Part shown: piece after piece, positions 8,291 to 29,860 of the stretch | Position numbering within the stretch: the stretch's first letter is position 1 | Layout of the letters: every line of letters starts with the position of its first letter | Source of the DNA: Acinetobacter sp. WCHAc010034 | GTDB lineage: Bacteria > Pseudomonadota > Gammaproteobacteria > Pseudomonadales > Moraxellaceae | DNA: 64,000 nt | NCBI RefSeq assembly: GCF_001696615.3 | Contig: NZ_CP032279.1 | Location: 1,240,001-1,304,000 of the forward strand | Direction of reading: 5' to 3' | The notes under the pieces: model-generated | What the model was told of the DNA's origin: nothing | Seen by the model: only the letters and a program-made list of their open reading frames with translations | Databases searched by the model: none | Position numbers and translations under genes: made by a program

Positions 8291-8312
8291 ATAAAATATT
8301 ATGGCATTATCT
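8281..8312 (+). terminator. Rho-independent terminator downstream of nrdB
   Basis: The arms agataatgtcata and tatggcattatct flank a short loop and are followed by TTTT on the plus strand. This fits the end of the nrd transcript. Confidence 0.65.
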
Positions 8313-8535: not shown

Positions 8536-8561
8536 GTGTCCACTTAAATTTTAGTAGACAC
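8536..8561. repeat. Unassigned inverted repeat near the island's left edge
   Basis: GTGTCCACT (8536-8544) and AGTAGACAC (8553-8561) pair with one mismatch around an 8-nt loop. It lies about 95 bp downstream of the giant nuclease-NTPase gene and could be a weak terminator or a leftover transposon end. There is no neighbouring transposase to decide. Confidence 0.4.
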
Positions 8562-8654
8562 TTTCACGGTATTAATGAGCTAGAAAAAGTGGGGGGCTGC
8601 GGTTTCTTAACTTATAGCACTAGTTTTCCCAAGTAATCATATTCTTACTGATTG

Positions 8655-11600: not shown

Positions 11601-13949
11601 ATCAATATCAACCCATCCTTCACTCAAGCCTGAAATATCATTTCCTGTTAAAGAAAGCCATTCATAAACAAGAGTTAAAATCTTTGGGGTTGTCCGATTT
11701 GGTAAGTACCTGTGCAAATTTTGCCACACATTAAATAAGGTCACGATATTCGGGAATAGCGCCTTTGGGATATTTTGCGTATTGCCAAGAATAAAATTAA
11801 TTAGACGATTCCAAAGAGAAATATCCGAAGGCCACGCTAAATTATCGGCAATTCTTATGTCTGATTTTGATTTTAGTATTATAGGGTTTGAAATAGTCTT
11901 TTCTGCTTGGAACCAAACCAATACTTTTCCAAGTAACGTAAAATTATTATGAGAGACTACTTTCATATAATCTTGAGTGCTGTCTAGAAAATTAGCATGC
12001 CCGATTGGACCTAATAGCCAAGCTCTTAGCCATTGGGAGCGCATAGTAGAGAATTTTGTATTTTTAAGAGTTTCTGACCAAGTATTATTAAAATATTCGA
12101 ATTGAGCTAATAGCTCTACTACACGAGCAATTGCTGGCGGTTGACCAAACTCTTCTATTTTAGTTAACCAATTTTCTTCTTGTTCAATTAAGACATACAG
12201 CAGAGACCACTCAAAAAAAATGTCATGTGAAAAATTGACAGATGTTCTGCTTGAACTGATTTGTATTAATCCATCACTGTGAAAACTCTCAATAAGACTA
12301 TGAGCCTGATTTAGCTCTCTAATCTTGATAGGTCGAGTTAAATTTTTTACTTTCTTTTCAGCTAGTTCTAAGAGCGCAGAGTGACGACTGACAAGCTCTT
12401 GCCCTAATGCATTGTATCCTCCCCTATCCCACCAATGCTGAATCAACTCTAGCTCTGATTGAGGTTTGAATGAGCTAGCATAAGTAAATGTGCTCATTAC
12501 TCTTGCAAAGAATGGCCTTCTAATTACATCTTTTACTGTTGGTGAACCAAAGAGTAAGGCTCTAAGATTCGGAAATTGGACCGCTAGCTCTTGAGACTCC
12601 TCTTCATTGAATAAACTTACTTGAACTGTGTCTACTGAAATTTTATCTAAAATATGACCTAACCAGTTACGTAAGGGTTCAATTCCAGTATCGCGCAGTG
12701 TCACTACAATTTTCCAATCTTCTAATGCAGGAGAGTTGAGAATTGTGTTAACTACTTCTTCAATTATTGGGCGATTTTGTTTTTCTATACGGTCTATTCC
12801 ATCAATAAACAATGTAGGAGTTCCAGTTACTTTAATTTCTAAAAGAAGCTCTTCAAGATTGTGAGTCGCAACTCCATTTTGAGCGGAATAATTAATCCAA
12901 CTATTACCTATTAATTGATCCGATTTTAAAAAAAATATATTTCCATTTGCTAGAGATTTCTCTGCCATTTGCTTCAACAATACGGACTTTCCAGAACCAG
13001 GTAATCCGGTAATTTGAAGAAAGCGAGTATTAAGTAACGTAGTTTCTAATTTAACTTCTAATGACTTTCTTGATATTGTAAAACCATTAATATCATGTGG
13101 AATAAGATTTATATAGGATCGGCCTAAATTGTTGAGTACATCAAGCTGCTGTTCAAAAGAAGGGGCTATTCTGAGTTTCACCACTTTGGATACATCCTGA
13201 ACCAGTCTCTTTCGATCAAATTGCCCGGCCTTACCTGCAGAAGCTCTTGCAAGTTTATTTAGATGAGACCACACGAGAGAGTATTTATCTCTATCGGCTG
13301 TGGCCAAACTGTAGCCTATGAATTGCTCTGCAATATGTGAATCGACATCACCATCATGTAAAAAATCAAATTTAATAACAATAAAATGTGAAAGGAAAGA
13401 ATGTAATTCTTCCTGAGAAATAGGCCCGCCACAAATATCTTTAAGCAATGCCTCGATATCATTTTTTATCGTTTCTTGTTCATCACTTGCGTTTCCAGAA
13501 GAAGTAAATCGTTCAAAAAAATGTTTAGCATCATTACTTTCCTTAGCCAAATTGCATAATGTGGTCAGATCCCTGAATTTATTTGTAGCAATCGTGCCAA
13601 CTGCAGCACCATATTTATCTACACCTTTCTTAAATTGAGAATTTTTTAAAGTAGATATGCTATCGCGAATAATATCTCTAAAATCACCGTTAGTAGCTGC
13701 ACTACTGATGGTTAATGCTCGTTTAACTTGTAAACTCAATGTTCCAATTTGACCACTAGCACCTTTCCAACCTACGATGACATCATCTAATGGTTTTTCG
13801 AAATCTCGTTGTTGAACAGCCACATTAGTTACTATTCCATCACACCCTGGAGCACCTCTCTCTGCTAGTAAAGCAGCTAAATAAAATGCAGCAACATGAC
13901 CTTCAAACGTGAAACCCTCTCCTCCAGCAAGCTCAGGTGACTGAGACAT
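8655..13949 (-). CDS. Giant nuclease-STAND NTPase, Avs-like phage-defence candidate
   Basis: A 1764-residue protein with a strong ribosome-binding site (AAAGGAG) before the ATG. Residues 1-230 look like a PD-(D/E)xK nuclease of the DUF4297/Cap4-like type: Glu16 in FTFEGH, Asp55/Asp56 in KPLDDVIV and QVK at 74-76. A P-loop GLPGSGKS (315-322) and Walker B TLFIDGIDR (379-387) mark a STAND/NACHT-type NTPase. The remaining roughly 1200 residues are helix-rich and probably form the sensor. Nuclease + STAND NTPase + long sensor is the architecture of Avs proteins, which detect phage proteins and then cleave DNA. Residues about 922-932 are an (SP)5 run. The gene is AT-rich and stands alone in the island. 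Function is inferred from architecture. Confidence 0.72.
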   Translation of the reverse strand: MSQSPELAGGEGFTFEGHVAAFYLAALLAERGAPGCDGIVTNVAVQQRDFEKPLDDVIVGWKGASGQIGTLSLQVKRALTISSAATNGDFRDIIRDSISTLKNSQFKKGVDKYGAAVGTIATNKFRDLTTLCNLAKESNDAKHFFERFTSSGNASDEQETIKNDIEALLKDICGGPISQEELHSFLSHFIVIKFDFLHDGDVDSHIAEQFIGYSLATADRDKYSLVWSHLNKLARASAGKAGQFDRKRLVQDVSKVVKLRIAPSFEQQLDVLNNLGRSYINLIPHDINGFTISRKSLEVKLETTLLNTRFLQITGLPGSGKSVLLKQMAEKSLANGNIFFLKSDQLIGNSWINYSAQNGVATHNLEELLLEIKVTGTPTLFIDGIDRIEKQNRPIIEEVVNTILNSPALEDWKIVVTLRDTGIEPLRNWLGHILDKISVDTVQVSLFNEEESQELAVQFPNLRALLFGSPTVKDVIRRPFFARVMSTFTYASSFKPQSELELIQHWWDRGGYNALGQELVSRHSALLELAEKKVKNLTRPIKIRELNQAHSLIESFHSDGLIQISSSRTSVNFSHDIFFEWSLLYVLIEQEENWLTKIEEFGQPPAIARVVELLAQFEYFNNTWSETLKNTKFSTMRSQWLRAWLLGPIGHANFLDSTQDYMKVVSHNNFTLLGKVLVWFQAEKTISNPIILKSKSDIRIADNLAWPSDISLWNRLINFILGNTQNIPKALFPNIVTLFNVWQNLHRYLPNRTTPKILTLVYEWLSLTGNDISGLSEGWVDIDNIKDFRESLVSLILTAAEVYPEFTNRYLVENINSMQIEKSIFKHVIDYSPLLALTHSTLLVDFTLKYLLEDLPIDQLKMILKDDSISEQNYESILYKSKTQRTTGEQSLLDSSTYELRKRRSSDLSKNLCIKAGSRVFDSPSPSPSPSPSKEPFHSLFQHSATEALRLITLLSNHAITAWRQQQRITEQLSPIPLELDFPWGKQIFWGNQKEYIWNKHYWTPPGLACAYMALECWCSNQIRLGEAPDQLIERIVKGNTSIAILGIAVTIVLDKALVSQTALPLIGSQKILEADLFRMKNDLSFNGTKELLIGLFPRYIFQSSDDLKESFQQAILAFKDNLAFDYHEQIHGSETIKNLEKSALKYAELADPLTYNFQKTDDPKVLTVTHNSPSASLPENVKASEESYEFISQIELSSWVEKSFENGVLSDKYSIQSAIEYIKKYDSADLFQDPCDDFTDSSTRKRMRQCAVSAVVAAVLKFRTNIFEEDISWARGVIERARLTPINSYELSTPDAVYSTHPLKFVAKGLSAEFEHETSSDNTLSHLFNLIAHPSHEIAITGLTELLKFWDKDSKKVWAAIYYAFSLCHDHLKYKIYREFEKIEVAYNALYESINTYFQSDEEWMSLPVPSAPWKRLEDEVIQAKKERDERIAAAYRKNGFPNFNFNDHEKNHWVKADVGWDTSFAEKIISVLPIETIIQSSSKIFFLDFVSDLVKWTIEKVQPSWQSKSDRFNYEGDLYEWVDTLGALIGKICSVLSLEETKLRFLDPILTLKGDICWDFLRAVTNAYVSASLYKAEKISEDAVPTILLFLERFLRCTELQQGSHRAGEFHGIDLPEVAKILMFTNVEHDNSACRYINGDWSEIRTIMPVIDRFVREAGWSADIMHNFLTLCERAKEYYPSEVFSDQILHIISVNGFSGWEYKSLYARISELVQHFSDRDSPLEFQVRQKMLEIIDWQIDMGDRRSAALQLSETFREVYSAA
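11155..11184 (+). repeat. Hexanucleotide microsatellite inside the giant NTPase gene
   Basis: Five perfect copies of GGAGAA (plus strand) encode alternating Ser-Pro on the minus strand. The unit is a multiple of three, so copy-number change would alter linker length without shifting frame. Confidence 0.85.
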
Positions 13950-14495
13950 CCTTTTCTCCTTTTATATTCAGCTTAAGATGTATTTTCATTTCAGAAGTTA
14001 CGAGAAGAAAAGTAAAATATCTCCTTTGAAAATGACATTGCTCATATAGTTTTACTATAAAATTCAAATTAATCAATATATTTCAATATCTTATTTTAAG
14101 TAAAAAATATAAATTCTATCTATACTAGAGCTCTTGCGAAAGTATCATTTTTGACTATTTTAGGCTTTAATATTTCTTTAAAATCAAAAGTTATTTCCGA
14201 TGAAATTTTAACCAAAACAAGAAATCTACTTTATTAGTATTAACAAAATCTCATTGAAAACTCAAAACTGAAAGGCATATCATACCTAATAGTGAATAGC
14301 TACTGACTTTATAAATATTCTTTAATGAAATAAAATAGTTAATTAATGAGGTATTTATGAAGGATAAATATCCATGAAGAATTCAAACTTTAAATCCTGT
14401 AATAATCCAACTTAGAACTGACAATATCTTGGCTGTTTGACAAACAACCAAGTTTCAATTGAATTTTAGGTTAAAAATCATTAGATGATGAAATT
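13950..14495. other. AT-rich non-coding interval
   Basis: This 546-bp stretch separates the giant nuclease-NTPase gene start (leftward) from the 3' end of the lasso cluster. It must contain the promoter of the former. I see a hairpin at 14428-14452 but no ORF with a convincing start and no RNA gene. Confidence 0.5.
14428..14452. terminator. Possible terminator of the lasso processing genes
   Basis: The arms CTTGG-TGTTT and AAACA-CCAAG pair around a GAC loop, with one bulged base on each side. It lies about 45-70 bp past the leader-peptidase stop. The T run on the minus strand is poor, so confidence is limited. Confidence 0.4.
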
Positions 14496-15164
14496 TTAAA
14501 TTTTTAATATTATAGCAAGCTTATCTGATAAATCTGGCATATCTGAAATCACAACATCATCTACTTCAACCCAAGCATGAGATAAAAAATCATACTTTTG
14601 AATTCCAATTTTAAGATTAAAGTCATATTTTTTAAGAGTGAGGAAGTATGCAAGTATCAAGGAATTCTCTAGGCATTTTAAATCAAAAGGGAGTTTAGAC
14701 GACACTTTATGAATAAAACTGGCAGCTGAATTGACATAGCCAAAATCCTTATTGACACATTTAGAGTTTTTCTTTAGAAACTTTAGTAGATTAATTTTTT
14801 GTTTGAAAAAATAATTTTTTCCTGTGAAAAAAATACAGTAAATAATTATTATAAAAATTTTATCATGAAAGCTAATATCTTTATCGTCATTTTTTACGAA
14901 ATGACTAACATCAGCCCATGAATAGTTATCAATGCCTTCAATATCATTATACCGTACAATCTCAGATGATTTTATATTTTTTTCAAAGAGAAAAAGATAG
15001 TCATCTAATTTACTATCAAATGAACTAGAGTCATTAATATATTGATTCATAGCAAAAGATTGTTCTTTATCTAAAAAATGAAAACAATTAGATTCCAAAT
15101 CTAATATTACTATCTCGCTATCTAAACTAATTGCATAATAATCATTTTTTATCACATTTTTCAT
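14496..15164 (-). CDS. Lasso-peptide leader peptidase, fused recognition domain (McjB-like)
   Basis: In lasso-peptide systems the B protein binds the precursor leader and cleaves it. The N-terminal part (about 1-85; YYAISLDSEIVILDLESN) resembles a PqqD-like RiPP recognition element. The C-terminal part is a transglutaminase-like cysteine protease with Cys164 (LKCLENSLIL), His196 (SHAWVEV) and Asp208 (VISDMPD), the expected triad. At 222 residues it fits a fused B protein. Its ATG follows the cyclase stop by one base, so translation is probably coupled. The cluster order A-C-B differs from the classical A-B-C. Confidence 0.82.
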   Translation of the reverse strand: MKNVIKNDYYAISLDSEIVILDLESNCFHFLDKEQSFAMNQYINDSSSFDSKLDDYLFLFEKNIKSSEIVRYNDIEGIDNYSWADVSHFVKNDDKDISFHDKIFIIIIYCIFFTGKNYFFKQKINLLKFLKKNSKCVNKDFGYVNSAASFIHKVSSKLPFDLKCLENSLILAYFLTLKKYDFNLKIGIQKYDFLSHAWVEVDDVVISDMPDLSDKLAIILKI

Positions 15165-15165
15165 A

Positions 15166-16527
15166 CTATTGCTCGCTTAATTCCTTATATATCATTTCAA
15201 AAATAATAGAATTCATTAAATGTGTATCAAAGCCACCAACTCCTAATGAAGCAAGCTTTAATTTTTTGCCCAGCAAGTCTATATCTATAATTTTATTTTT
15301 ATATAAATAGCCATTCTCTAGGATATTAGAAAAAAACTCATAATTTTTTTTGAGTTCCCGTTGATATGCCCCTGTCATGTGACCTTTATTTATTCTAAAA
15401 AAATAGTCAGATTTGTACATTTTTTGAAAAGACTTTCTAAAATGTAAACGTGTAAAGTCTTCATTAAATGTTTCAGATATTTCAAAACTTTCAGAACAAG
15501 AAATCATTTCAGGAGTAACATATGGGAAAAAAAATTTAATATGTTTGGGCAATCTTATGGAGGCAACAGAGCATGCAAATAAAGCTTCAAAAATATTCTG
15601 TTTTCGATAGATGTCCATTTGTACCTTTTTAGAAGGCCGCAGAGTATGGAGCATAATTTTCTTGATTATTTTAAAATAGTTTATCGAATATAACTTTGAA
15701 TATTCTTTGATTTTTGCCAGAAACTTATAGTCGAGTAACTCATACGGAATGGACTGGAAAAATAAGTGGTCTCCACCATGCCCATCAAGAATGACAAATT
15801 GATTCCCTTTAAAGTATTGATTTAATTCTGAAACATAGTGTTCAACAAAACCTAAACTTGTTAAGTAGGTAAAGGGGAAAGGCGAGAAAATAGACGTTTC
15901 TTTTTTAAAGTCATTCAATAAAAAACCAGTATCTAAGTCAAATGTTAATAGCTTGACTGACAGTTCATTGCAAATTTTTTGTGAGTACTTTAAATCATTG
16001 TTTGATGACCCTTTATTATGCCATGTAAAAGCAATTATATTTTTATCTGGAAATTTATTTTTTACAGAATACAGTATGGCAGTTGAATCTAAGCCACCAG
16101 AAAAACTTACAGCAATATTATCTTGGTCACTAATTTTATCCAGAACTGATAATAAGCATGTTGCAGGATCATTATTACTACATGACCTCTCAATCAAATC
16201 AATCTCAATTGATGTGCCATTTTTTATCAACTTATACCCATGGTATAGTGGGTAAATATTGTTTATAAATATATCATGCGCAAATATATCCCCCCCAAGA
16301 CTCCTTGAAAGAACACTTCTATCTATATTATTTTTATCAAAAGATTTAAGATCATAGAAGTTTTCCGATAAATATAGAAACTCCTCATCAAACTCTAAAT
16401 AAAAACAAATATTTGAGTTATATTGATTGTAAATAATGAGAGTTTCACTATTTTTTTCAATCTTTAGGAAGCCATTAAAAAGAACAACTGTACTGGCTAA
16501 ATCTTTAATATTTACTTTGTTAATCAT
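15166..16527 (-). CDS. Lasso-peptide cyclase, asparagine-synthetase-like (McjC-like)
   Basis: This enzyme adenylates the side-chain carboxylate of the core Glu/Asp and joins it to the new N-terminus, making the macrolactam ring. Of 453 residues, about 130-330 carry the asparagine-synthetase fold: the pyrophosphate loop SGGLDS at 143-148 and DGHGGDHLF at 248-256. The N-terminal region is a degenerate glutaminase-like domain without an N-terminal catalytic Cys, as expected for cyclases rather than true asparagine synthetases. It sits between the precursor gene and the leader peptidase on the same strand. Strongly AT-rich, unlike the core genome. Confidence 0.82.
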   Translation of the reverse strand: MINKVNIKDLASTVVLFNGFLKIEKNSETLIIYNQYNSNICFYLEFDEEFLYLSENFYDLKSFDKNNIDRSVLSRSLGGDIFAHDIFINNIYPLYHGYKLIKNGTSIEIDLIERSCSNNDPATCLLSVLDKISDQDNIAVSFSGGLDSTAILYSVKNKFPDKNIIAFTWHNKGSSNNDLKYSQKICNELSVKLLTFDLDTGFLLNDFKKETSIFSPFPFTYLTSLGFVEHYVSELNQYFKGNQFVILDGHGGDHLFFQSIPYELLDYKFLAKIKEYSKLYSINYFKIIKKIMLHTLRPSKKVQMDIYRKQNIFEALFACSVASIRLPKHIKFFFPYVTPEMISCSESFEISETFNEDFTRLHFRKSFQKMYKSDYFFRINKGHMTGAYQRELKKNYEFFSNILENGYLYKNKIIDIDLLGKKLKLASLGVGGFDTHLMNSIIFEMIYKELSEQ

Positions 16528-16572
16528 GGCTTTAAATGTTATTTAAAAGGTTTTTATTATTAAATTAAAAAA

Positions 16573-16609
16573 GGTAAAGAAATATTAATTATCTTAATAT
16601 TTCTTTACC
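16573..16609 (-). terminator. Terminator/attenuator after the lasso precursor gene
   Basis: A perfect 16-bp stem (16573-16588 with 16594-16609) with a 5-nt loop is followed on the minus strand by six T residues. It lies 11 bp past the precursor stop and about 45 bp before the cyclase start, so partial read-through would give more precursor than enzyme transcript. Confidence 0.8.
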
Positions 16610-16619
16610 TGTTTAAGTG

Positions 16620-16748
16620 TTAGTTAAATTTATAAACACCCAAACGAACTTCAATAATAGGACCTACGCCTCTACCATTAATATTCGATGTTGCTTGAAG
16701 TGTTGTGGTTTTAGCATTTTTAGAAAATTTCTTAATTAAAGTTTTCAT
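16620..16748 (-). CDS. Candidate lasso-peptide precursor (42 residues)
   Basis: ATG at 16748 follows AAAGGAAA at a good distance; the stop is at 16620-16622. The product is a short basic peptide: leader MKTLIKKFSKNAKTTTLQAT followed by SNIN, then the likely core GRGVGPIIEVRLGVYKFN. Counting from Gly25, Glu33 is position 9, allowing a 9-member macrolactam; Gly27 would give a 7-member ring. Ile occupies the -2 position, where Thr is usual. The ring stretch GPIIE also occurs in klebsidin, and acinetodin has the similar GPIFE. It is the first gene before the cyclase and peptidase on the minus strand. Processing site and ring size are inference. Confidence 0.75.
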   Translation of the reverse strand: MKTLIKKFSKNAKTTTLQATSNINGRGVGPIIEVRLGVYKFN

Positions 16749-17175
16749 CAGTATTTCCTTTGATTGTTTTGGAGTTTTTTACTGTACATTCTTTAATCTG
16801 TTACAATGTATCTGTAATGTTACTTTTTGTATTTATAATCTTGTTAGATAAAATTTATAATAAAAACCAATGGTTAATAAAAATAAAATATGTATAAATA
16901 TCTTTTAGAGATTAATAGTTTACCAATATTTTAATGACTTATTTTTTTGGGGAAATAGGTTGAAATATATAAAAAGACTCAATGAGTATACAAAAAAAGA
17001 TTGATTTAGCTCTAGAAGATCAGCATTATTTATTACAGTAAGCATACTTCTATTTGGTTTATTTTTTAAAAAAACTTAATACTAGACTATTGTTATGGAA
17101 ATAAACTTATTAATTAGAACTATTACATGTTTTAAAACTAACATGTTTACCAGTGATTAAAATTGAGCTTGAACT
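16749..17175. promoter_or_regulatory. Divergent regulatory region between precursor and exporter
   Basis: This 427-bp, very AT-rich interval lies between the precursor gene (leftward) and the McjD-type exporter (rightward) and should hold both promoters. TATAAA-like hexamers occur in the minus direction about 90 bp before the precursor ATG. I cannot assign transcription starts or an operator. Confidence 0.45.
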
Positions 17176-18873
17176 ATGAAAAGTAAAGTGGAACTTTTTT
17201 TGTTTTATTTAAATTTAATTAAGGACAGATATGCCAAAATATATCTCCACGCTGCAATTCTTCTTTTTATTACCATCTTAGTTTCAGCACTTACAACATT
17301 TTTGCCATATTTAATGAAGTTGATTGTTGATTCCTCAAATAATATTCTGATTACTGATGTTATTGACAAAAATAATCTAATATTGTTACTAGCAATTAGT
17401 TTTTCAACTGCGTGGGTAGCACTTAAAGTCCTAACATGGACTACCAATATTTTTTCAGCTTACTTTATGGTTAATATTGAAGCGAATATAATCTTTTCGT
17501 CTTTTGCTAATTTTATAAGATCAAAAATTGACTTTGTAAATAAGACGGACACTGGTGTTCTGAACTCGGATGTGCAGCGCGGATCGCTCGCATTTGGGCA
17601 GATCATATATACGATTTTCTTAGTTCTTCTTCCTGTTATCATCCAATTCTTACTTATAATTTCAGTAATTTCATTCAAGATTAGCCTTAGTTTTACTTTA
17701 TTTTTCTCTGTTGCAACGATCTTTATTTTTGTGCTTACACTCATGCTTATAAGGAAGAGTGGGAGCTACTTTAATGAGATTTATGATGCAGACAATAGCC
17801 AATCAAAGTTCTTTTTAGAAAAAGTGAACTCTGTCTACAATATTAAATCCCAAGGTTCTGGTGATTTTGAGACAAATAAATTTAGATCAATTTGTCAAAA
17901 CTATATCGAGAGAGTTTTTCATGGTAATTTGAAAATTGGTATGTTGATGATATATCAAGTGTTTGCTGTTGGTGTGTTCTTAACAGGGTCTATGATTTAC
18001 TCTGTATACATGTTCAATAGCAATCAATTCACTGCAGGTGATTTTGTTTTAATTAGTTCCTATATCATTGAACTTAGCGCACCATTAGTCCTTGTTTCAC
18101 AGAACTTGATGCAAACGAATGGCCATTTTGTTTCTATCGAAAAATTAGAAAAATATTTCAAGAGTCCAAAAGACGCTGTTGTCGAAAGCAGCTATCAGCT
18201 AGAAGAAACTTACTACCGCTTCCAAGATGTAAATTACAGCGTCAATGATGTAGAAATTTTAAGAAATTTTAACTTTGAAATCACTAAGGGGACATTCTTA
18301 GTTATTAAGGGAGAGACAGGTTCTGGAAAATCAACATTCATTAATTTATTGTTAGGTATTAATAAAATCGATAGTGGGAAATTATTTTTTGGTGATCTGG
18401 ACATATCTAACTCATTTTCTTCAAAAATCCATGATGTAGTATCATTTGTTCCTCAGAAAAGTTTTATTTTTTCAGGAAGTGTTATGGAAAACATATTATA
18501 TAACAATAATTTACACTACTCTGAAGAAGAACTAATTGCGATACTTAAAGAGTTCAATCTTTATAAAATTTTGGTAAATAATAATATATCTTTGAACTCC
18601 CCTATAGATGAACTCTTCAAGTTTTTCTCTGGTGGAGAAGTACAGAGATTTAATCTTGTAAGAGCAATTCTAGCCAAACCAGAAGTCCTTATTCTAGATG
18701 AACCTACTTCGGCTTTAGATTCTATAATGGCCAAAAAAGTCTTTGATATTATTAGAAAGAATGTTTCTACACTTATTGTTGTTTCTCATTCGGACTCACT
18801 TATTAAGTTAGCTGATGCACAGCTACATTTCCCACTTGTGCAATCACAAAATTTAGTAAAAAGCGGAAGCTGA
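17176..18873 (+). CDS. ABC exporter of the lasso-peptide cluster (McjD-like)
   Basis: A 565-residue half-transporter with a transmembrane domain (about residues 1-315, six helices) fused to an ATPase domain. Walker A GETGSGKST (379-387), signature FSGGE (484-488), Walker B VLILDEPTSALD (504-515) and the His switch VVSHSD are intact. It is transcribed divergently from the precursor/cyclase/peptidase genes. In lasso clusters such an exporter moves the mature peptide out of the cytoplasm and gives self-immunity; that role is inferred from position. An alternative is a generic MsbA-like lipid or drug exporter. Confidence 0.78.
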   Translation: MKSKVELFLFYLNLIKDRYAKIYLHAAILLFITILVSALTTFLPYLMKLIVDSSNNILITDVIDKNNLILLLAISFSTAWVALKVLTWTTNIFSAYFMVNIEANIIFSSFANFIRSKIDFVNKTDTGVLNSDVQRGSLAFGQIIYTIFLVLLPVIIQFLLIISVISFKISLSFTLFFSVATIFIFVLTLMLIRKSGSYFNEIYDADNSQSKFFLEKVNSVYNIKSQGSGDFETNKFRSICQNYIERVFHGNLKIGMLMIYQVFAVGVFLTGSMIYSVYMFNSNQFTAGDFVLISSYIIELSAPLVLVSQNLMQTNGHFVSIEKLEKYFKSPKDAVVESSYQLEETYYRFQDVNYSVNDVEILRNFNFEITKGTFLVIKGETGSGKSTFINLLLGINKIDSGKLFFGDLDISNSFSSKIHDVVSFVPQKSFIFSGSVMENILYNNNLHYSEEELIAILKEFNLYKILVNNNISLNSPIDELFKFFSGGEVQRFNLVRAILAKPEVLILDEPTSALDSIMAKKVFDIIRKNVSTLIVVSHSDSLIKLADAQLHFPLVQSQNLVKSGS

Positions 18874-18894
18874 TGTGTTAGTGTAAAAGTAGTA

Positions 18895-18933
18895 GTAGTC
18901 GTTTTACTATCTACAAAATTGTAAAACGACTAC
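18895..18933 (+). terminator. Strong hairpin between exporter and macA-like gene
   Basis: Perfect 13-bp arms (18895-18907 and 18921-18933) enclose a 13-nt loop. There is only a weak T/A tail, so partial termination or mRNA processing between the exporter and the MacAB genes is likely. Confidence 0.55.
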
Positions 18934-18966
18934 ATGTTAAAAATAATTCATTCACATGACTAAGTT

Positions 18967-20139
18967 ATGGCTATAAGAAAAAAGTTAAGTTTGTTTTTGA
19001 TAGTATTTTTCGTATTGCTGTGCGCTGCAGTAATTATCTTTTATTACAGTAAAATCAAGGATACTACTGAGGCTACTCCTAGTATTTCTACTGTGCAAAG
19101 AAGCGATATAACAGAAAATGTAAAGGCTGTAGGAGAAATCTATGCAACTGAACTTGTATCTGTCGGAGCGCAAGTATCAGGTCAAATTCTAAAATTGCAT
19201 ATTAAACTAGGTCAATCTGTGAAGAAGGGCGATTTAATTGTAGAGATTGACTCTAAAACACAAGTCGACAAATTAAATACGGCAAAAGCAGAACTTGAAT
19301 CAGCTAAAGCGGATTTAGCAGCCAAAAGAATGTCGCTGGCCACATCAGAAAAGAGCTTCATAAGAAAAAAGAAACTTTTTGAGGTTGAAGCTGAGTCTAA
19401 AGAGTTGCTTGAACAGGCAGAAAATAAATTAAAACAAGATGAAATGGGTGTTGAAAGTGCCAAACTACGCCTAAAGCAGCTTCAAATTAATGTTAATACA
19501 GCACAAACTGAATTGGGGTATACTCAAATTAGATCCCCACTTACAGGCACAATTGTTTCACTCCCTGTCGAAGCAGGGCAAACAATTAATTTTGCTCAAA
19601 CAACTCCATTGATTGCCGTGATTGCAAATTTGGAGCAGATGGAGGTTAGAATGCAAATTGCTGAAGGTGACTATACAAAGCTTAAACCCAACATGCTTGT
19701 TATCTTCAGCACACTTGCAGACCCTGCCATAAAATTGAATGGGCAAGTTATAAGCATTGATCCCGCATTAACGACATTAACGAAAGGGACTTATGATAAC
19801 AAGGCTGAAAATACCGATTCAGCGGTTTACTACTATGCACGTATGATTGTCGAAAATCCGCGCAAAATGTTAAGCATTGGCATGACTACACAAAATGAAA
19901 TCATAATTAATCAGAAAAAAAACGTACTTGCTATCCCAAAAACAGCAATCTTTGAAAATGGCGATCAAACAACGGTTTCAGTTTATAGTGCTGATAAAAA
20001 AATCACTCCAAGGAAAATTAAAACAGGTATATCTGATTTTACGCAGATCGAAGTAGTGCAAGGACTTAAAGACGGTGAAAAAGTATTAACTGAATTTCAG
20101 GATGGTGTGAATTCTGAAAGCACAGGAGCTGATCCTTGA
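18967..20139 (+). CDS. macA: Periplasmic adaptor of a tripartite pump (MacA-like)
   Basis: A membrane-fusion protein of 390 residues that links an inner-membrane MacB-type ATPase to a TolC-like channel. One N-terminal membrane anchor lies at about residues 7-27. A barrel-sandwich segment (VGAQVSGQILKLHIKLGQSV), a long helical hairpin (about 95-180, rich in Ala/Glu/Lys) and a beta-barrel region follow. It overlaps the MacB-like start by 4 nt, so the two are translationally coupled. It follows the lasso exporter by 93 bp on the same strand; a role in carrying the peptide across the outer membrane is inferred. Confidence 0.82.
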   Translation: MAIRKKLSLFLIVFFVLLCAAVIIFYYSKIKDTTEATPSISTVQRSDITENVKAVGEIYATELVSVGAQVSGQILKLHIKLGQSVKKGDLIVEIDSKTQVDKLNTAKAELESAKADLAAKRMSLATSEKSFIRKKKLFEVEAESKELLEQAENKLKQDEMGVESAKLRLKQLQINVNTAQTELGYTQIRSPLTGTIVSLPVEAGQTINFAQTTPLIAVIANLEQMEVRMQIAEGDYTKLKPNMLVIFSTLADPAIKLNGQVISIDPALTTLTKGTYDNKAENTDSAVYYYARMIVENPRKMLSIGMTTQNEIIINQKKNVLAIPKTAIFENGDQTTVSVYSADKKITPRKIKTGISDFTQIEVVQGLKDGEKVLTEFQDGVNSESTGADP

Positions 20140-22073
20140 GTACAAATTCTAAGGCAAGTTCTGTTTTGATTGAGGTCAAAAATCTGAATAAATTTATGGG
20201 GCAAAAAAAGAATCAGCAACATATTCTAAAAGACATTTCCTTCTCGATTGAACAGGGCGAGTTTATTTCTATCATTGGACAGTCTGGCTCTGGTAAATCT
20301 ACACTTATGCACTTGTTAGGCTGTTTAGATACAGCTACTTCTGGTGAATTTTCTTTCCGCGGGAAACGCATTGATCTTCTAAGTCCTGACGAGTTAGCTG
20401 ATTTGAGGTTAAAAAGCTTTGGGTTTGTTTTTCAAAAGTACAATTTATTAAACTCAGTCAGTGCGCTTGAAAACGTTGCGTTACCAGCGATCTATTCAAG
20501 TCTAAATGCAAGTGCACGCCGGATGCGGGCCATGAAGTTACTTTCTGATTTAGGCCTTGAGGATAAATACGATAGTAAGCCCAATGAGTTGTCGGGTGGT
20601 CAGCAACAACGAGTTAGTATAGCTCGCGCGTTAATGAACGGTGGTGAAGTAATTCTGGCGGATGAGCCAACAGGAGCACTGGACTCCAAAAGTGGTGAAA
20701 TAGTTCTGCAGATATTAGAAAAACTACACCAAGCTGGCCATACAATCATACTTGTTACTCATGATAGTAATATTGCTAAACGGGCGAACCGGGTGATTGA
20801 AATTAAGGATGGAGAAATATTATCTGACCGAAAAAATAAGGATACGGTTTCAGTATTAGGTGGAGAAGAATTTGCTGTAGAGACTAAATTTAGTTTGGTT
20901 TCTCAAATTTTTGAAGCCTCAAAAATGTCCATTCACTCTATATGGTCTAATAGATTACGATCATTTTTAACAATGCTAGGTATTATTATTGGAATTTGCT
21001 CAGTCACAATCATCATTGCAATAGGGCGTGGCGCAAATCAAAAATTTCTAAGTGACTGGAAGGGGCTGAAGGAAGTCACGTTAATGATTTATCCAGGACG
21101 AAGTGAGTTAGAAGCATCGTCAAGCCGTTTAAATATTGATGATGTAACAGCGCTTAAAGTCCTTCCTGAAGTGATGCATATATCTCCAAATATAAACGTC
21201 TCAGGTAAATTAATATATCTGAATAAAAATTTAAAAGTTACCGCACAAGGATCTGATGATTTTGGCCTCAAAATTTCCAACCTTTCCTTAGTGCAAGGGC
21301 GTTTCATTAGTAAAGATGATGTCAAAGAGAATGCCAAAGTGATTGTTATTGATGAACAGACTGCTAAAAAGCTTTTCGTACAGAATAAGGCCGCATTGAA
21401 TAAAACAGTTCTGTTTAATAAACAATTATATGAAGTGGTGGGAATTGCCAAAAATAATTATGGCAGCAGCTCTCCATCAATGTGGGTGCCAGATACGGCG
21501 TTGCAAGCACAAATGTCTAGATCAAGTCCTTTAAATGGGATGACTGTGGTTGTTAAACAAAATTTTGAACCTGAAAAAGTACAAGAAAAGGTAAGAAAAA
21601 CTTTAATTGCACGCCATCAAATTGAAGATTTCCAGATTTTTAGTAGTGATGAAGCAGCAAAATCCTTAAAGAAATATATAGATACCATCACATATTTTAT
21701 TTCAGCCGTTGCTTTTATTTCACTACTGGTTGGTGGTATTGGTGTGATGAATATTATGCTTGTTTCAGTCACGGAACGAATTAAAGAAATTGGATTAAGA
21801 ATGGCAATCGGTGCTAAAAAACGTGATATTAGTATGCAATTCTTGATAGAAGCATCAGTCTTATGCTTAGTGGGTGGCTTGATTGGGGGAAGTATCGCAT
21901 TTATTTCAAGCCTTCTTTTTAATGCATTCAGTCTTCAATATAAAATGATATTCTCATGGTCGGTGGCATTGTTTGCTTTATTATTTTCATCAATTATTGG
22001 ATTAGTCTTTGGATACATACCTGCGAATCGTGCTTCAAATCTTAAGCCTATTGAAGCCTTAACGGATGATTAG
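20136..22073 (+). CDS. macB: MacB-like ABC transporter with MacB periplasmic core domain
   Basis: A 645-residue inner-membrane ATPase. It starts with TTG overlapping the macA-like stop (TTGA), with GGAG about 8 nt upstream. The N-terminal ATPase domain has Walker A GQSGSGKST, signature LSGGQQQRV and Walker B VILADEPTGALD. A membrane helix follows near residue 275, then a periplasmic domain (about 300-520) and three C-terminal helices containing VGGIGVMNIMLVSVTERIKEIG. MacB pumps drive export of peptides and macrolides from the periplasm through TolC. With McjD and the lasso genes next door, the likely cargo is the lasso peptide. Confidence 0.85.
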   Translation: MSTNSKASSVLIEVKNLNKFMGQKKNQQHILKDISFSIEQGEFISIIGQSGSGKSTLMHLLGCLDTATSGEFSFRGKRIDLLSPDELADLRLKSFGFVFQKYNLLNSVSALENVALPAIYSSLNASARRMRAMKLLSDLGLEDKYDSKPNELSGGQQQRVSIARALMNGGEVILADEPTGALDSKSGEIVLQILEKLHQAGHTIILVTHDSNIAKRANRVIEIKDGEILSDRKNKDTVSVLGGEEFAVETKFSLVSQIFEASKMSIHSIWSNRLRSFLTMLGIIIGICSVTIIIAIGRGANQKFLSDWKGLKEVTLMIYPGRSELEASSSRLNIDDVTALKVLPEVMHISPNINVSGKLIYLNKNLKVTAQGSDDFGLKISNLSLVQGRFISKDDVKENAKVIVIDEQTAKKLFVQNKAALNKTVLFNKQLYEVVGIAKNNYGSSSPSMWVPDTALQAQMSRSSPLNGMTVVVKQNFEPEKVQEKVRKTLIARHQIEDFQIFSSDEAAKSLKKYIDTITYFISAVAFISLLVGGIGVMNIMLVSVTERIKEIGLRMAIGAKKRDISMQFLIEASVLCLVGGLIGGSIAFISSLLFNAFSLQYKMIFSWSVALFALLFSSIIGLVFGYIPANRASNLKPIEALTDD

Positions 22074-22201
22074 TTGTGGAAATGAAATGCTATATTAGGC
22101 TTGAACTTCCATCCTATCATGCCACTCTAATCTATTACTGCAAATGACACTCACCACGTTCAATACACATCATATAGCTCCGATCAATACCACATTGCAA
22201 T

Positions 22202-22227
22202 AAGAATATCTCTTGAATGATATTCTT
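22202..22227 (+). terminator. Terminator downstream of macB-like gene
   Basis: The arms AAGAATATC and GATATTCTT enclose an 8-nt loop and are followed by TTTC and a later T run, about 130 bp after the MacB-like stop. Confidence 0.55.
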
Positions 22228-22288
22228 TTCTAATTTTTTACTGCGAATTCATTGACCGATTGCTAGAGATAACCCTGTCATTTGAGAC

Positions 22289-23160
22289 TGTATTAGTTCA
22301 GATTTGATCGGACATAGCTCTTGAAAAAGAGAAAGTTACCCGTTTTGATAAAGGTGTAAACAAAGGTAACTTTTTAATGAATTACGCAAGAAGGGTGTAT
22401 TTTTTTCAGGTAGTAGTGTTCGCTCTATTTGGCTCCTCCAGATAACTTTCAAAAGCGTTTAAAAGCACTCGAAGCTAAAGTGGCACAGGATGGCATTTAA
22501 ATGATCATCAGATTGCAACACTTGAACGCATACATGAAGCTGATACAGCATGTGGTGAAATAGAAACAGCTTATCCTGGCTATTTGGGTGAGCAAGATAC
22601 CTTTTTATGTCAGCAATCTTAAGGGTGTTGGACGGATCTGCCAGCAAACATTTATCGATATTTATAGTAAAGTCGTTTATTGCAAGCTCTATACCGTGGC
22701 TGATTTGCTCAATGATCGTGTATTAGCTTTCTATCAATCTCAGGATTTACCAATGCTTCGTATTTTTACAGACAGAAGTATTGCGGGAAGGTAAAACAAT
22801 ATGACTATGAGTTGTATCTAGCCCTCAATGACATTGATCACACCAAGACAAAAGCCGCTTCACCACAAACAAATGGAATATGTGAGCGCTTTCATAAAAT
22901 GATATTACAGGAATTCTATCAAATTACGTTTAGGAAGAAGCTTTATAGTTCACTGGAAGAATTACAAGTTGACCTAGACGGTTGGCTGAAATTCTATAAT
23001 ACTGAACGGACTCATCAAGGAAAAATGTGCTATGGCCGTACACCATTTGAAACTTTACTTGATGGAAAACGAATTTGAGCTGAGAAGAATTTAGCTCAAA
23101 TTTAACCTGACAGGCACAATAAAAAATAGGTAACTGTCAGCTCAGGCTTGAGCTAGTACA
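22289..23160 (+). mobile_element. Degraded IS481-family insertion sequence
   Basis: Imperfect terminal inverted repeats are visible: left TGTATTAG... at 22289-22314 and right ...CTAGTACA at 23135-23160, matching at 17 of the 25 aligned positions. The element is 872 bp, shorter than usual for the family, with a broken transposase inside. I see no convincing target duplication. Confidence 0.65.
22400..23078 (+). pseudogene. IS481-family transposase remnant
   Basis: Pieces in different frames reconstruct an IS481 integrase core. A segment reading RLKALEAKVAQDG is followed, after a frame change, by EIETAYPGYLGEQDTF. Then come SNLKGVGRICQQTFIDIYSK (first Asp), LPMLRIFTDR (second Asp), and from 22812 DIDHTKTKAASPQTNGICERF with the catalytic Glu, ending at 23078. 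At least three frameshifts or stops make it non-functional without correction. The helix-turn-helix N-terminus is missing. Confidence 0.8.
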
Positions 23161-23179
23161 TCTCGTAGTAACAGTATAG

Positions 23180-23217
23180 TTATCTATATTATTCTATTAA
23201 AATAGATATATAGGTAA
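23180..23217. promoter_or_regulatory. Palindromic AT-rich operator-like site
   Basis: An imperfect inverted repeat (TTATCTATAT ... ATATAGGTAA) lies about 90-125 bp upstream of the XRE-type gene at 23306. Such genes often repress themselves through palindromes, so this may be its operator. Confidence 0.35.
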
Positions 23218-23305
23218 TTAAAATACTATTATTTTTTTATTATAATAGAAAAACATAAGGGGATGGTAAACTGAAAATTATAATCAGCTCATTAATGAGG
23301 ATCTT

Positions 23306-23602
23306 ATGGATAAACGCTTTAAATCTATTACAACTATTGAGGTACATCTTAATCGATATAAAGTATTAGAGACCATCAATCAAAACCCTGATTGGCCAAT
23401 TCATATCGTAGCAAAATTCCTGAGAACTGAATGCCATCTAACACTTAAAGATATGTCAAAGCTAACAAAAATCTCCCCACAAGCTATACAAAAACTTGAA
23501 CAACCCAATGGAAATCCAACTTTGAATACAATTATCAAGCTTTTTACAACATTTGGTTTAAAAATAACTATTATCACAGAAGATCAATTACCTAAGAGGT
23601 AA
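23306..23602 (+). CDS. Small XRE-type helix-turn-helix regulator, antitoxin-like
   Basis: A 98-residue protein whose residues about 45-90 (LTLKDMSKLTKISPQAIQKLEQPNGNPTLNTIIKLFTTFGL) form an XRE/HipB-type helix-turn-helix. It starts at ATG after GAGGATC. No toxin-like partner lies on either side: upstream is the IS481 remnant and downstream an AT-rich gap with another transposase fragment. It may be an orphan antitoxin or a solitary regulator. Confidence 0.6.
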   Translation: MDKRFKSITTIEVHLNRYKVLETINQNPDWPIHIVAKFLRTECHLTLKDMSKLTKISPQAIQKLEQPNGNPTLNTIIKLFTTFGLKITIITEDQLPKR

Positions 23603-23855
23603 AGGCAAAGTTCACAGATTACACTCTTCAAAATAATAAAAATAATTTTTGGAATAAATGGATCATAAAATTCACTCAATTTAAATGAATATTCAATATT
23701 TAGAAGATACAGAATTATGTACTTTATGACCATTTTTAATAAGTAATGTACAAAATATTGTACCCTACGAATATGTTCTTAAGTACTTATTTTATCTAGG
23801 TGTTTAGTCCCAGGTTTTAATGGTGCAATATTCTCACATAAATGGAAGGAAGCAC

Positions 23856-24043
23856 TATGGAATAAGCTCTACACAGCAGCGCCACAACGACACAGGCAGT
23901 GTGTCGAGCAATACAAAATAGTCAAGAGAGCTTAAGAGTACTAGCCAAGCGCTACAGTATCAATCAAAAGACTGTCCCAAAGTGGAAGAAACTCACTTCA
24001 GTAGATGATCTGACAACCGGGTCGTTTGTAGACTATAAAACCA
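23856..24043 (+). pseudogene. N-terminal fragment of an IS transposase
   Basis: The translation TQAVCRAIQNSQESLRVLAK followed by RYSINQKTVPKWKKLTSVDDLTTG is the helix-turn-helix head of an IS481-like transposase. A frameshift separates it from the LYTAAP start region, and the sequence stops abruptly where the minus-strand XRE gene ends. No catalytic domain is present. Confidence 0.65.
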
Positions 24044-24052
24044 ATGTAATTT

Positions 24053-24313
24053 TTATTCGTCATCTTCTGCAAAGAGTGCTTCAATTTCATCCCATCGTGG
24101 GAATACATGCTTTTTTTTACCGACTTCGAATTGTAAGCCAACACCATCAATTACACGTTCAAATATGTCAAATGAACCTGTAAAGCGTCCATTTTCCATC
24201 TCAGAGATTGTTGTTTTATTAACTTTAATCTTTTCTGAAAGGGTCTTCTGTGTATAGCCTAAAGCTTTTCTTGCCAAACGTATCTCTTTACCTATTTCAC
24301 CTCTTGTAGCCAT
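24053..24313 (-). CDS. XRE-type regulator/antitoxin (HipB-like)
   Basis: An 86-residue protein. Residues about 8-60 (IGKEIRLARKALGYTQKTLSEKIKVNKTTISEMENGRF) are a classic XRE helix-turn-helix. The acidic tail EIEALFAEDDE is typical of small antitoxins. Upstream lie 39-bp tandem repeats containing promoter-like and operator-like sequence. Downstream, where a hipA-like toxin would be expected, there is only a truncated transposase head, so the partner may have been deleted. Function is inferred. Confidence 0.65.
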   Translation of the reverse strand: MATRGEIGKEIRLARKALGYTQKTLSEKIKVNKTTISEMENGRFTGSFDIFERVIDGVGLQFEVGKKKHVFPRWDEIEALFAEDDE

Positions 24314-24339
24314 ATCAATCTGTAGCTCCTAAGTTTTGT

Positions 24340-24438
24340 TAGCCATATAGCAAACTTTTAGCTTATTATGGCTAATGTTAGCCATATAGCAAACTTTTAG
24401 CTTATTATGGCTAATGTTAGCCATATAGCAAACTTTTA
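24340..24438. repeat. 39-bp tandem repeat upstream of the XRE gene
   Basis: Two full units (24340-24378, 24379-24417) and a 21-bp partial third (24418-24438) are near identical. Each unit holds TTAGCCATA and its inverse TATGGCTAA. In the gene's direction TTGCTA and CATAAT, 16 bp apart, form a -35/-10-like pair. This looks like a duplicated promoter-operator. Confidence 0.75.
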
Positions 24439-24490
24439 ATATTAAAACACCATTCGTTTGACCCAAAGATACCCTCAGAGGTCAAGAGGA

Positions 24491-24976
24491 TTATTGAGAA
24501 TTGGCGCAATAATTCTCCTGATAAGGCCGCTGATGCTTGAGTACGCAATAACACAGATGAATCAGCTTCCTCATCGCAGCGCCAACCGCCATCATCTTGG
24601 TTTTGCCATTCGCCAGCAGCCTGTCATTCATCCCCTTTATGTGGGGATTATGCCGGGTTGCGACAATCGCCACCATATATAAGCCGGCGCGTATTTTCGA
24701 AGAGCCGGCTTTGGATAGGCGGCTCCTGCCGTGAATGGAGCTGCCCGACTGCCTTTGAATGGGAACCAGGCCGGCAAAGGCGGCCGCCTGGCTCGCCCTT
24801 TCAAAAGCATGGCTGCGCAAGAAGCTGAGCATTAATAAACTGGTCCGGTCCGCAATGGCCGGAATGCTGCTGAGCAGCGCCTTGTCATTTTTTTAATCAG
24901 GATTCTGATCAATGTGGTCATCAATCTGCCGGTCGAGATCCTGAATGTGCCTGCTTAACTGCTTAATATTCTTATA
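24491..24976 (-). pseudogene. IS110-family transposase, C-terminal remnant
   Basis: The open part (24491-24832) reads LVPIQRQSGSSIHGRSRLSK and SSKIRAGLYMVAIVATRHNP, the conserved Transposase_20 end of IS110 transposases. Upstream, the frame continues back through ADRTSLL and KALLSSIPAI to an in-frame TAA next to an A-rich stretch, and before that QIDDHIDQNPD. The DEDD catalytic N-terminus is missing. Its GC-rich codon use matches the core genome rather than the AT-rich island around it. Confidence 0.75.
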
Positions 24977-25084
24977 AACCAATTGATTTAATTAACAAAT
25001 AAATTTCACACTATCTATATTCTAACTATATCGTTATGCTCAAAAAACAATAAATTCAATAAATATTTGATAGATGAAAATAAA

Positions 25085-25156
25085 GGCAAAAAGGCAAAAA
25101 GGCAAAAAGGCAAAAAGGCAAAAAGGCAAAAAGGCAAAAAGGCAAAAAGGCAAAAA
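25085..25156 (+). repeat. Nine perfect copies of an 8-bp tandem repeat (GGCAAAAA)
   Basis: Copies run without interruption from 25085 to 25156, about 130 bp before the tnsA start, in the region expected to contain one end of the Tn7-like element. The unit is not a multiple of three. A minus-strand open frame crosses it only because the repeat has no stops. Confidence 0.9.
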
Positions 25157-25287
25157 AACTATTATCTAATAAGTCTAAAAATCTAACATTACAAAAAGTA
25201 ATCTTTCTTGAACAGAGAGTTATCCAACCATAAGATGAAATCAAGCTATCATTAATTTTCATAAAGAAAATTCTTGGAGTTTTCGAG

Positions 25288-25953
25288 ATGGCTATGCATG
25301 GTGTTAGGCGTATTACCAATCGAGGGCGAGACCGAGTAATTGGAAAATTTGCTAGCTTAAAGATGCAGCATATTATCCAATGGGAGTCTCAAATAGAAAG
25401 AGACTGTTGCTACTGGCTTGAGTTTGATAGAGATGTAATTGCCTACCGTTCACAACCACTAATTATTTCCTATATCTTTGAAGATAGAAAGCTGCGTCAT
25501 ACTCCAGACTTTGAGGTCATGCGTCACAGCTTACAAACAGGTCAATATCAATATTTAGAAGTTAAGCCATATAAGAAAACAATGGAGGATGAATTCAAAC
25601 GCAAACATATTGCTCGTGCTGCACACTTTCATCTCCATGGACATATATACGATTTAATAACTGATGAACATCTTCGTAAAGGCAGCTACTTAGATAATAT
25701 TCGACTTCTATACCGATACGCTCGCTTAATACTTAATCCTGAAATACTTGTAAAAATCAAACGAGCCTTACCAAATCATTCTAAACACACTCTAAAAGTA
25801 CTACAAAATCATTGTGTTGACTTTGGAGCAGAAATGGAACTTGCGTATCTCTTACTCTACAACGGTAGCGCTCGATTCGATATGGAGAAGCCTCTTCATA
25901 TTAATACCGAAATAGAGATGACTTGGTATGCTGGAGAGATGATCTATGAGTAG
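25288..25953 (+). CDS. tnsA: TnsA-like heteromeric transposase endonuclease subunit
   Basis: TnsA cuts the 5' strands at the ends of Tn7-like elements. The 221-residue protein has the expected nuclease core: IERD in the first third, Asp in RHTPDFEVM and ExK in YLEVKPYKK, matching the Glu/Asp/Lys pattern of Tn7 TnsA. A C-terminal winged-helix-like part follows. It overlaps the tnsB start by 8 nt. The alternative ATG six bases downstream is possible. It is the first gene of a tnsABC-tniQ operon. Confidence 0.85.
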   Translation: MAMHGVRRITNRGRDRVIGKFASLKMQHIIQWESQIERDCCYWLEFDRDVIAYRSQPLIISYIFEDRKLRHTPDFEVMRHSLQTGQYQYLEVKPYKKTMEDEFKRKHIARAAHFHLHGHIYDLITDEHLRKGSYLDNIRLLYRYARLILNPEILVKIKRALPNHSKHTLKVLQNHCVDFGAEMELAYLLLYNGSARFDMEKPLHINTEIEMTWYAGEMIYE

Positions 25954-29845: not shown

Positions 29846-29860
29846 TCGATTGATGAGCGT

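What the first reader, a model, noticed from the sequence alone, without database searches (positions are those of the whole stretch)
14496..22073. Complete candidate lasso-peptide gene cluster with unusual gene order and its own MacAB pump
Seen: a 42-codon precursor, an asparagine-synthetase-like cyclase (SGGLDS at 143-148), a fused recognition-domain/cysteine-protease protein (Cys164, His196, Asp208), an McjD-type ABC exporter transcribed divergently, then macA- and macB-like genes. Established: these are exactly the parts of lasso biosynthesis. Unusual: order A-C-B instead of A-B-C, and the added tripartite pump. AT-rich composition and nearby IS remnants point to horizontal gain. The product would be a new peptide, possibly an antibacterial.
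Basis: partly seen in the sequence, partly recalled or inferred. Interest (0 to 1): 0.86.

Follow-up and report, generated by a model that had tools for sequence, protein, structure and literature searches.

The report
Lasso-peptide cluster with two-pump export
A Tn7-like jumping element in an Acinetobacter-like bacterium carries the genes for a predicted new knotted (lasso) peptide together with an inner-membrane exporter and a MacAB pump, which likely act in relay to push the peptide through both membranes, a pairing that appears to have arisen independently in Pantoea plasmids.

Summary
At 14496-22073 lies a full set of lasso-peptide genes: precursor A, cyclase C and protease B on the minus strand; exporter D, macA and macB on the plus strand. 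It is not acinetodin, the described Acinetobacter lasso peptide: that cyclase is 27% identical and its genes run A-B-C-D. The A-C-B order is no quirk of this genome. It recurs in five other lineages (A. indicus, Pantoea, E. coli/Salmonella and Rhizobium plasmids; P. viridiflava), and all six precursors share one core plan: Asn | Gly1-x3-Gly5 ... Glu9 ... [V/I]14-aromatic15-[K/R]16. The MacAB pump is the real interest. Pantoea plasmids carry D-macA-macB in the same order, yet the data reject one common clade of the lasso MacBs (AU test), so the pairing was probably recruited twice. This favours a relay: D moves the peptide into the periplasm, and MacAB with a host TolC-type channel would expel it. 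A 2021 review calls this step of lasso-peptide export unclear. Product, export route and activity are untested.

The parts
16620..16748 (-). Gene A: 42-residue lasso precursor; predicted core is residues 25-42 (window 16623-16676)
   Evidence: (AAGGAA shortly before ATG); shares the N|G1xxxG5..E9..[VI]14[YWF]15[KR]16 plan with five other precursors
16572..16610 (-). Stem-loop with T-tail between A and C (17-pair stem); would let A be made in excess of C and B
   Evidence: -19.7 kcal/mol for 16561-16620; function inferred
15166..16527 (-). Gene C: asparagine-synthetase-like lasso cyclase, 453 aa, SGGLDST at 143-149
14496..15164 (-). Gene B: lasso leader protease (B2 domain, Cys164-His196-Asp208), with an N-terminal half that may be the recognition domain
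   Evidence: recognition domain inconclusive
16749..17175 (.). Divergent intergenic region (21.8% GC) between A and D, expected to hold both promoters
   Evidence: promoter scan found no more matches than shuffles (40 against 40.5)
17176..18873 (+). Gene D: ABCB-type half-transporter, 565 aa, predicted inner-membrane exporter of the lasso peptide
18874..18966 (+). 93-bp D-macA gap with a perfect 13-bp inverted repeat (18895-18907 / 18921-18933), no T-tail
18967..20139 (+). macA: periplasmic adaptor, 390 aa, with an RxxxLxxxxxxS stretch (133-144) like the TolC-docking RLS motif
20136..22073 (+). macB: MacB-family ABC transporter, 645 aa, overlaps macA by 4 bp
8198..32770 (.). Tn7-like transposon that carries the cluster as cargo (TGT...ACA ends; three 17-bp repeats at 8206-8265 spaced 21-22 bp; repeats at 32613 and 32744 that resemble them by eye; tnsA, tnsB split by an IS, tniB/tnsC, tniQ at 25288-32320)

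Best explanation
This is a complete lasso-peptide gene cluster followed by macA and macB, whose products likely work as an export relay: exporter D would move the predicted 18-residue peptide into the periplasm, and MacAB with a host TolC-type channel would expel it through the outer membrane. Inferred from families: B removes the 24-residue leader, C activates Glu33 (Glu9 of the core) and joins it to Gly1 as a 9-residue ring, and the tail is held by Tyr15/Lys16 (predicted plug). Shown: the genes, their order and their conserved catalytic residues; the same D-macA-macB order in Pantoea plasmids; separate MacB clades. Inferred: threading, export route, target. The cluster sits in a Tn7-like transposon (sequence evidence), so it was gained as mobile cargo.
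For: B, C and MacB match profile families. All six A-C-B lineages keep Gly1, Gly5 and Glu9 plus an aromatic at 15 and Lys/Arg at 16. D-macA-macB occurs in 3 of 3 Pantoea loci read, with macA and macB overlapping by 4 bp as in the window. MacB tree of 29 rows: the window MacB sits in a starred clade of 10 within a starred 11, the Pantoea MacBs in a starred clade of four with E. coli and Rahnella plasmid MacBs; a single clade of the five lasso MacBs is rejected (232 log-likelihood units lower, AU p 1e-64). Window-Pantoea MacB identity, 36.7%, is the lowest of the 21 comparisons of the window MacB. So two recruitments fit best. A contig of 10,353 bases seems to hold both a 74% cyclase and an 89% MacB, judged by its length. 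Both MacAs carry RxxxLxxxxxxS. No outer-membrane factor gene lies in the window's cluster or is annotated in the Pantoea loci, whereas non-lasso MacAB operons on E. coli and Rahnella plasmids have one next to them; the host has 12 OEP matches, about six proteins, to lend a channel. MacB pumps take substrates from the periplasm, peptides included (PMC8277102, section 43 read whole, passages of section 54). McjD and YojI need TolC for microcin J25, and whether by a tripartite complex or a soluble intermediate is 'not clear' (PMC8277102 passage).
Against: MacAB is not needed by the type: the A. indicus, E. coli, Salmonella and Rhizobium A-C-B stretches fetched lack it, and none of the 120 MacB hits listed shows the contig length of the 73-79% cyclase relatives other than P0005 (only the longest contig of each cluster is shown). 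macAB is 37% GC against 25-31% for A, B, C and D, so it joined separately and could be a passenger. The D-macA gap holds an inverted repeat and a promoter-like match, so co-transcription is not assured. RxxxLxxxxxxS arises in 6.5% and 18.5% of shuffles of the two MacAs. In one Pantoea strain D is annotated in two pieces while MacAB is whole. Eight MacB clusters at 58-69% are listed with no lasso link seen.
Confidence: 0.62

Rival explanations
1. MacAB is the immunity arm: it clears peptide that re-enters the producer's periplasm, while D with the host TolC does the export.
For: MacAB removes substrates from the periplasm (PMC8277102 passages); exporters in lasso clusters are said to give the host immunity (PMC13352647 passage); clusters without MacAB exist.
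Against: Nothing in the calls speaks against it directly; the same pump could do both, so the two readings differ mainly in what removal of macAB would do.
Confidence: 0.2
2. MacAB is a passenger: a general efflux pump that landed next to D in the transposon's cargo region and handles other substrates.
For: Different GC content; MacB relatives at 58-69% with no lasso link seen; MacAB absent from four of the five other A-C-B lineages' stretches that could be judged or read (A. indicus, E. coli/Salmonella, Rhizobium without it, Pantoea with it; the P. viridiflava contig ends after B).
Against: Same position and direction right after D in Pantoea, from a different MacB clade; in 15 lasso-B2 loci of 14 other gammaproteobacterial genomes no MacB-profile hit exceeded 117 bits, against 1018-1089 in Pantoea (a weak control, several loci are cut by contig ends and most seem of another lasso type).
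Confidence: 0.15
3. The cluster is not functional as a lasso pathway (decayed or making a linear or branched peptide).
For: No expression data; leader position -2 is Ile, not the Thr usual in lasso leaders (recalled); E. coli and Pantoea relatives include copies annotated in pieces.
Against: All six window genes are open, with conserved catalytic residues and cyclase relatives at 73-79%.
Confidence: 0.06

Closest known systems
Acinetodin cluster (A. gyllenbergii CIP 110306, locus L013; precursor recognised by the recalled acinetodin core)
   Same: Lasso cluster of an Acinetobacter; B is 29-32% identical and shares the catalytic triad
   Different: Order A-B-C-D; cyclase only 27% identical and longer (560 aa); D belongs to another branch (50% to the A. 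indicus D); no MacB-profile hit but D's own ATPase in about 8-9 kb on either side
Microcin J25 (mcjABCD) and its McjD/TolC export
   Same: Precursor, protease, cyclase, ABC exporter; McjD needs TolC (PMC8277102 passage)
   Different: Listed as mcjA, B, C, D (PMC13352647 legend); eight-residue ring; no MacAB mentioned for it in the passages read
Pantoea agglomerans plasmid clusters (L003, L010, L111)
   Same: A-C-B plus D-macA-macB; same core plan of the precursor
   Different: All on one strand; cyclase 30% identical; MacB from another clade; two Cys in the tail
MacAB-TolC and kin (PvdRT-OpmQ, PseEF, entolysin pump)
   Same: MacB-family pumps that export peptides or siderophores (PMC8277102 section 43)
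   Different: Here the pump follows a lasso exporter gene and has no outer-membrane factor gene of its own
Pandonodin (class IV lasso peptide, 33 residues, tail disulfide; PMC13352647 passages)
   Same: Possibly the nearest described relative of the two-Cys Pantoea and E. coli cores (idea only; its sequence was not compared and its paper is not held)
   Different: The window core has no Cys; gene order of pandonodin not checked

Membership tests
Lasso-peptide biosynthetic cluster | Leader protease of the B2 / transglutaminase-like family with Cys-His-Asp | tested here: met
   NF033537 61.4 bits vs cut-off 33, PF13471 57.2 vs 26; C164, H196, D208 invariant in 7 of 7
Lasso-peptide biosynthetic cluster | Asparagine-synthetase-like cyclase with the ATP-binding SGGxDS motif | tested here: met
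   PF00733 37.5 bits vs 21; SGGLDST invariant in 16 of 16 aligned
Lasso-peptide biosynthetic cluster | Precursor with a leader and a core starting at Gly with Asp/Glu at core position 7-9 | tested here: met
   Gly25 and Glu33 (core 1 and 9), kept in all six lineages
Lasso-peptide biosynthetic cluster | Recognition element (B1/RRE), fused or separate | tested here: inconclusive
   No profile hit in 7 relatives; low-confidence model with matching strand/helix order
Lasso-peptide biosynthetic cluster | Thr at leader position -2 (recalled; usual, not defining) | tested here: not met
   Window -2 is Ile, A. indicus Val, P. viridiflava Ile; Thr in the Pantoea, E. coli and Rhizobium precursors and in acinetodin's. 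Exceptions are known (recalled)
Lasso-peptide biosynthetic cluster | Mature threaded product | not testable with these tools
   needs mass spectrometry or NMR
MacAB-TolC-type tripartite pump | MacB with ABC, periplasmic core and FtsX domains, plus adaptor MacA | tested here: met
   PF00005, PF12704, PF02687 in macB; PF16576 and the MacA model for macA
MacAB-TolC-type tripartite pump | Outer-membrane TolC-type factor | tested here: inconclusive
   None in the cluster; 12 OEP matches elsewhere in the genome, one pair next to the host's own MacB; pairing untested
Tn7-like transposon | TnsA, TnsB, TnsC/TniB and TniQ genes, TGT...ACA ends and end repeats | tested here: met
   PF08722, PF09039 and PF09299, PF05621, PF06527; ends and repeats. 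A clean 5-bp target duplication was not found (AATCC left, GCTCC right)

The most novel reading that the evidence does not exclude
Lasso clusters have twice, independently, hard-wired a MacAB pump behind their exporter, making a two-pump relay with a free periplasmic lasso-peptide intermediate: the first encoded inner-to-outer route for a lasso peptide, carried here by a Tn7-like transposon.
Probability: 0.48. Interest if true: 0.74.

Novelty: new variant of a known kind. Interest (0 to 1): 0.6.

Why it matters
A 2021 review says it is not clear whether McjD and YojI act in true tripartite systems with TolC or whether there is a soluble intermediate of transport (PMC8277102 passage). A natural cluster that encodes D and a periplasm-emptying pump side by side makes this testable with gene removals. 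It also points to a coherent group of A-C-B lasso clusters on plasmids and transposons of Gram-negatives, E. coli included, with a shared core plan that can guide genome mining.

Tried and rejected
Identity with acinetodin: rejected, 27% cyclase identity, another order and another exporter. A-C-B as a unique order: rejected. A single origin of the lasso MacABs: rejected by the AU test; the tool warns of long branches where the Pantoea group joins the rest, and the rows tested were chosen after the tree was seen. Precursor and E. coli precursor against solved structures: no hit. B profile against solved structures: no hit; cyclase profile: only other PP-loop enzymes. B structure: too poor to search by fold, so no fold search was made. 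The first genome-contig scan found nothing; the second gave 15 loci: the acinetodin and P. viridiflava clusters and 13 short matches not followed up. More A-C-B cyclases: 398 phylum and 369 class genomes gave, besides the own genome, 4 and 7 genomes with weak partial hits (best E 2.4e-18) not followed up; 390 order genomes 2 such; 58 relatives and 299 family genomes the own genome only. Host name: not found; 16S about 96% to A. baumannii by 250-base bins, 7 rRNA operons, so an Acinetobacter-like Moraxellaceae. Promoter scan: no excess over shuffles. Literature: of the papers listed (15 of 29 listed; 20 of 43 listed) and 87, I saw none whose title or abstract start reports MacAB in a lasso cluster or a lasso cluster in a Tn7-like element; I saw passages of PMC6784204, PMC13352647, PMC7549694, PMC13003496, PMC13082787 and PMC8277102 (section 43 of the last whole). 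Most subscription papers are not held.
Full report
What is there. Six open genes fill 14496-22073. On the minus strand: A (42 aa), C (453 aa) and B (222 aa), C and B almost touching. On the plus strand: D (565 aa), macA (390 aa) and macB (645 aa, TTG start, overlapping macA by 4 bp). B is a lasso leader protease by NCBIfam and Pfam, C an asparagine-synthetase-like cyclase, D an ABCB-type half-transporter, and macA/macB a MacA/MacB pair. C keeps SGGLDST in all 16 sequences aligned, and B keeps Cys164-His196-Asp208 in 7 of 7. The N-terminal half of B, where a recognition domain is expected, matched no profile, and the model is too poor to settle it.

Which lasso group it is. The nearest cyclases (73-79%) include two named Acinetobacter oleivorans and A. 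gyllenbergii; others at 36-50% include A. nosocomialis, A. baumannii and Oligella. The described Acinetobacter lasso peptide, acinetodin, is not this: strain CIP 110306 has a precursor ending in the acinetodin core (recalled sequence), a cyclase 27% identical to the window's, and the order A-B-C-D. Plasmid records gave the A-C-B order in A. indicus and Acinetobacter sp. 10FS3-1 (D-A-C-B), Pantoea agglomerans (A-C-B-D-macA-macB), E. coli and Salmonella (A-C-B-D) and Rhizobium (A-C-B-D), and a genome contig gave Pseudomonas viridiflava (A-C-B, the contig ends there). In each of these six lineages, the window's included, the gene before C encodes a short peptide with one plan: Asn, then Gly1, Gly5, two aliphatics at 7-8, Glu9, Val/Ile14, an aromatic at 15 and Lys/Arg at 16. 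That supports a core start at Gly25 of the window precursor and a 9-residue ring; Tyr15/Lys16 is the predicted plug. A database search with the four-precursor alignment returned 8 proteins: the window's, the A. indicus one, one Pantoea-like and five E. coli-like, one of them a fragment.

The MacAB pump. Pantoea plasmids carry D-macA-macB in the same order and direction in 3 of 3 loci read; the cyclases of L003 and L111 are 86.6% identical, so the order has lasted. A further contig seems to hold both a 74% cyclase (P0005) and an 89% MacB (P0020): both are single-contig proteins of the same source with a longest contig of 10,353 bases. The clusters in A. indicus, E. coli, Salmonella and Rhizobium lack MacB in the stretches fetched, and none of the 120 MacB hits listed (of 7,933) shows the contig length of the other four close relatives, though only the longest contig per cluster is shown. 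In a 29-row tree the window MacB and the Pantoea MacBs fall in different starred clades, the latter with plasmid MacBs of E. coli and Rahnella; holding the five lasso MacBs (the window's, P0020, P0021 and two of Pantoea) together is rejected, 232 log-likelihood units lower, AU p 1e-64 (P0021 has no known lasso link, and the set was named after the tree was seen). The two share 36.7% identity, less than either shares with any other row compared. By BLAST the cyclases pair window with A. indicus (40%) and Pantoea with E. coli (33%), and in each pair only one has MacAB. Two separate recruitments into the same slot behind D are hard to explain unless pump and peptide belong together. As a control, 15 lasso-B2 loci from 14 other gammaproteobacterial genomes (15 of 369 genomes searched had one, the own included) gave no MacB-profile hit over 117 bits in up to 10 kb on either side, against 1018-1089 bits in Pantoea. 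The control is weak: several loci are cut by contig ends and most seem of another lasso type.

How it likely works. From the families: B cuts the leader, C forms the Gly1-Glu9 bond, D moves the peptide across the inner membrane. MacB-family pumps do not move substrates across the inner membrane but take them from the periplasm and drive them out through an outer-membrane channel, peptides included (PMC8277102, section 43 whole and passages of section 54). So D and MacAB fit in series, not in parallel. The window's cluster has no outer-membrane factor and none is annotated in the Pantoea loci, while related non-lasso MacAB operons have one; the host has about six OEP proteins, one beside its own chromosomal MacB. 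Both MacAs have the RxxxLxxxxxxS pattern of the TolC-docking tip; the review's legend mentions an RLS motif, the spacing is recalled, and the pattern arises in 6.5% and 18.5% of shuffles. The same review says of McjD and YojI that it is not clear whether they join true tripartite systems or there is a soluble intermediate. Immunity by MacAB, or a mere passenger, remain open: macAB has higher GC (37%) than A-D (25-31%), and the 93-bp D-macA gap holds a perfect 13-bp inverted repeat.

How it got here. The island (8000-33500, 34.5% GC) lies between flanks of 52-55% GC; of eight 20-kb samples of the chromosome seven are 49-55% and one 40.6%. It is a Tn7-like transposon: tnsA, a tnsB split by an IS5-family element, tniB/tnsC and tniQ, TGT...ACA ends at 8198 and 32770, and end repeats. 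Of the seven relatives' loci holding a DUF805 gene like the one at the right flank, two have nrdB directly upstream with only a terminator-like hairpin between; in the other five nrdB was not found in the stretch. By those two, the element sits inside the nrdB terminator, 21 bases after the stop codon. Its other cargo includes a 1764-residue protein with weak AAA/NACHT matches.

Verdict. A real, complete lasso cluster of a distinct A-C-B group; new variant of a known kind. The route out of the cell, with D and MacAB in series, is the part worth the bench. Threading, export and activity are untested.

Noticed in passing
window 8198-32770: Tn7-like transposon inserted in the terminator of nrdB, 21 bases after its stop codon, much as Tn7 does behind glmS (recalled); empty site seen in two relatives (L091, L093). 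tniQ lies nearest the right end; flanking pentamers AATCC/GCTCC are not a clean duplication.
   Followed up: partly
window 26925-27769: IS5-family element (83-90% identical in the rows listed to copies on Acinetobacter plasmids, one named ISAba31) splits tnsB, so the transposon may no longer move by itself.
   Followed up: partly
window 8655-13949: 1764-aa protein with weak AAA/NACHT and PADLOC (DUF626_VIII, PDC-M54A) matches: a possible defence gene in the transposon cargo.
   Followed up: partly
L004 6367-10478; L009; L124: E. coli and Salmonella plasmids carry an A-C-B-D lasso cluster with a two-Cys tail; matches in 131 of 5,426 complete E. coli genomes, 24 over at least 80% of the stretch, all on plasmids. 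Some copies are annotated in pieces.
   Followed up: partly
window 57654-58709: Host region matches Acinetobacter plasmid copper-resistance oxidase genes at about 76% in the rows listed.
   Followed up: no
window 22287-23160 and 24491-24832: Remnants of IS481- and IS110-family transposases next to the cluster.
   Followed up: no
L111 1-1079: An RNase A-like domain protein and a contact-dependent-inhibition immunity protein are annotated upstream of one Pantoea lasso cluster.
   Followed up: no
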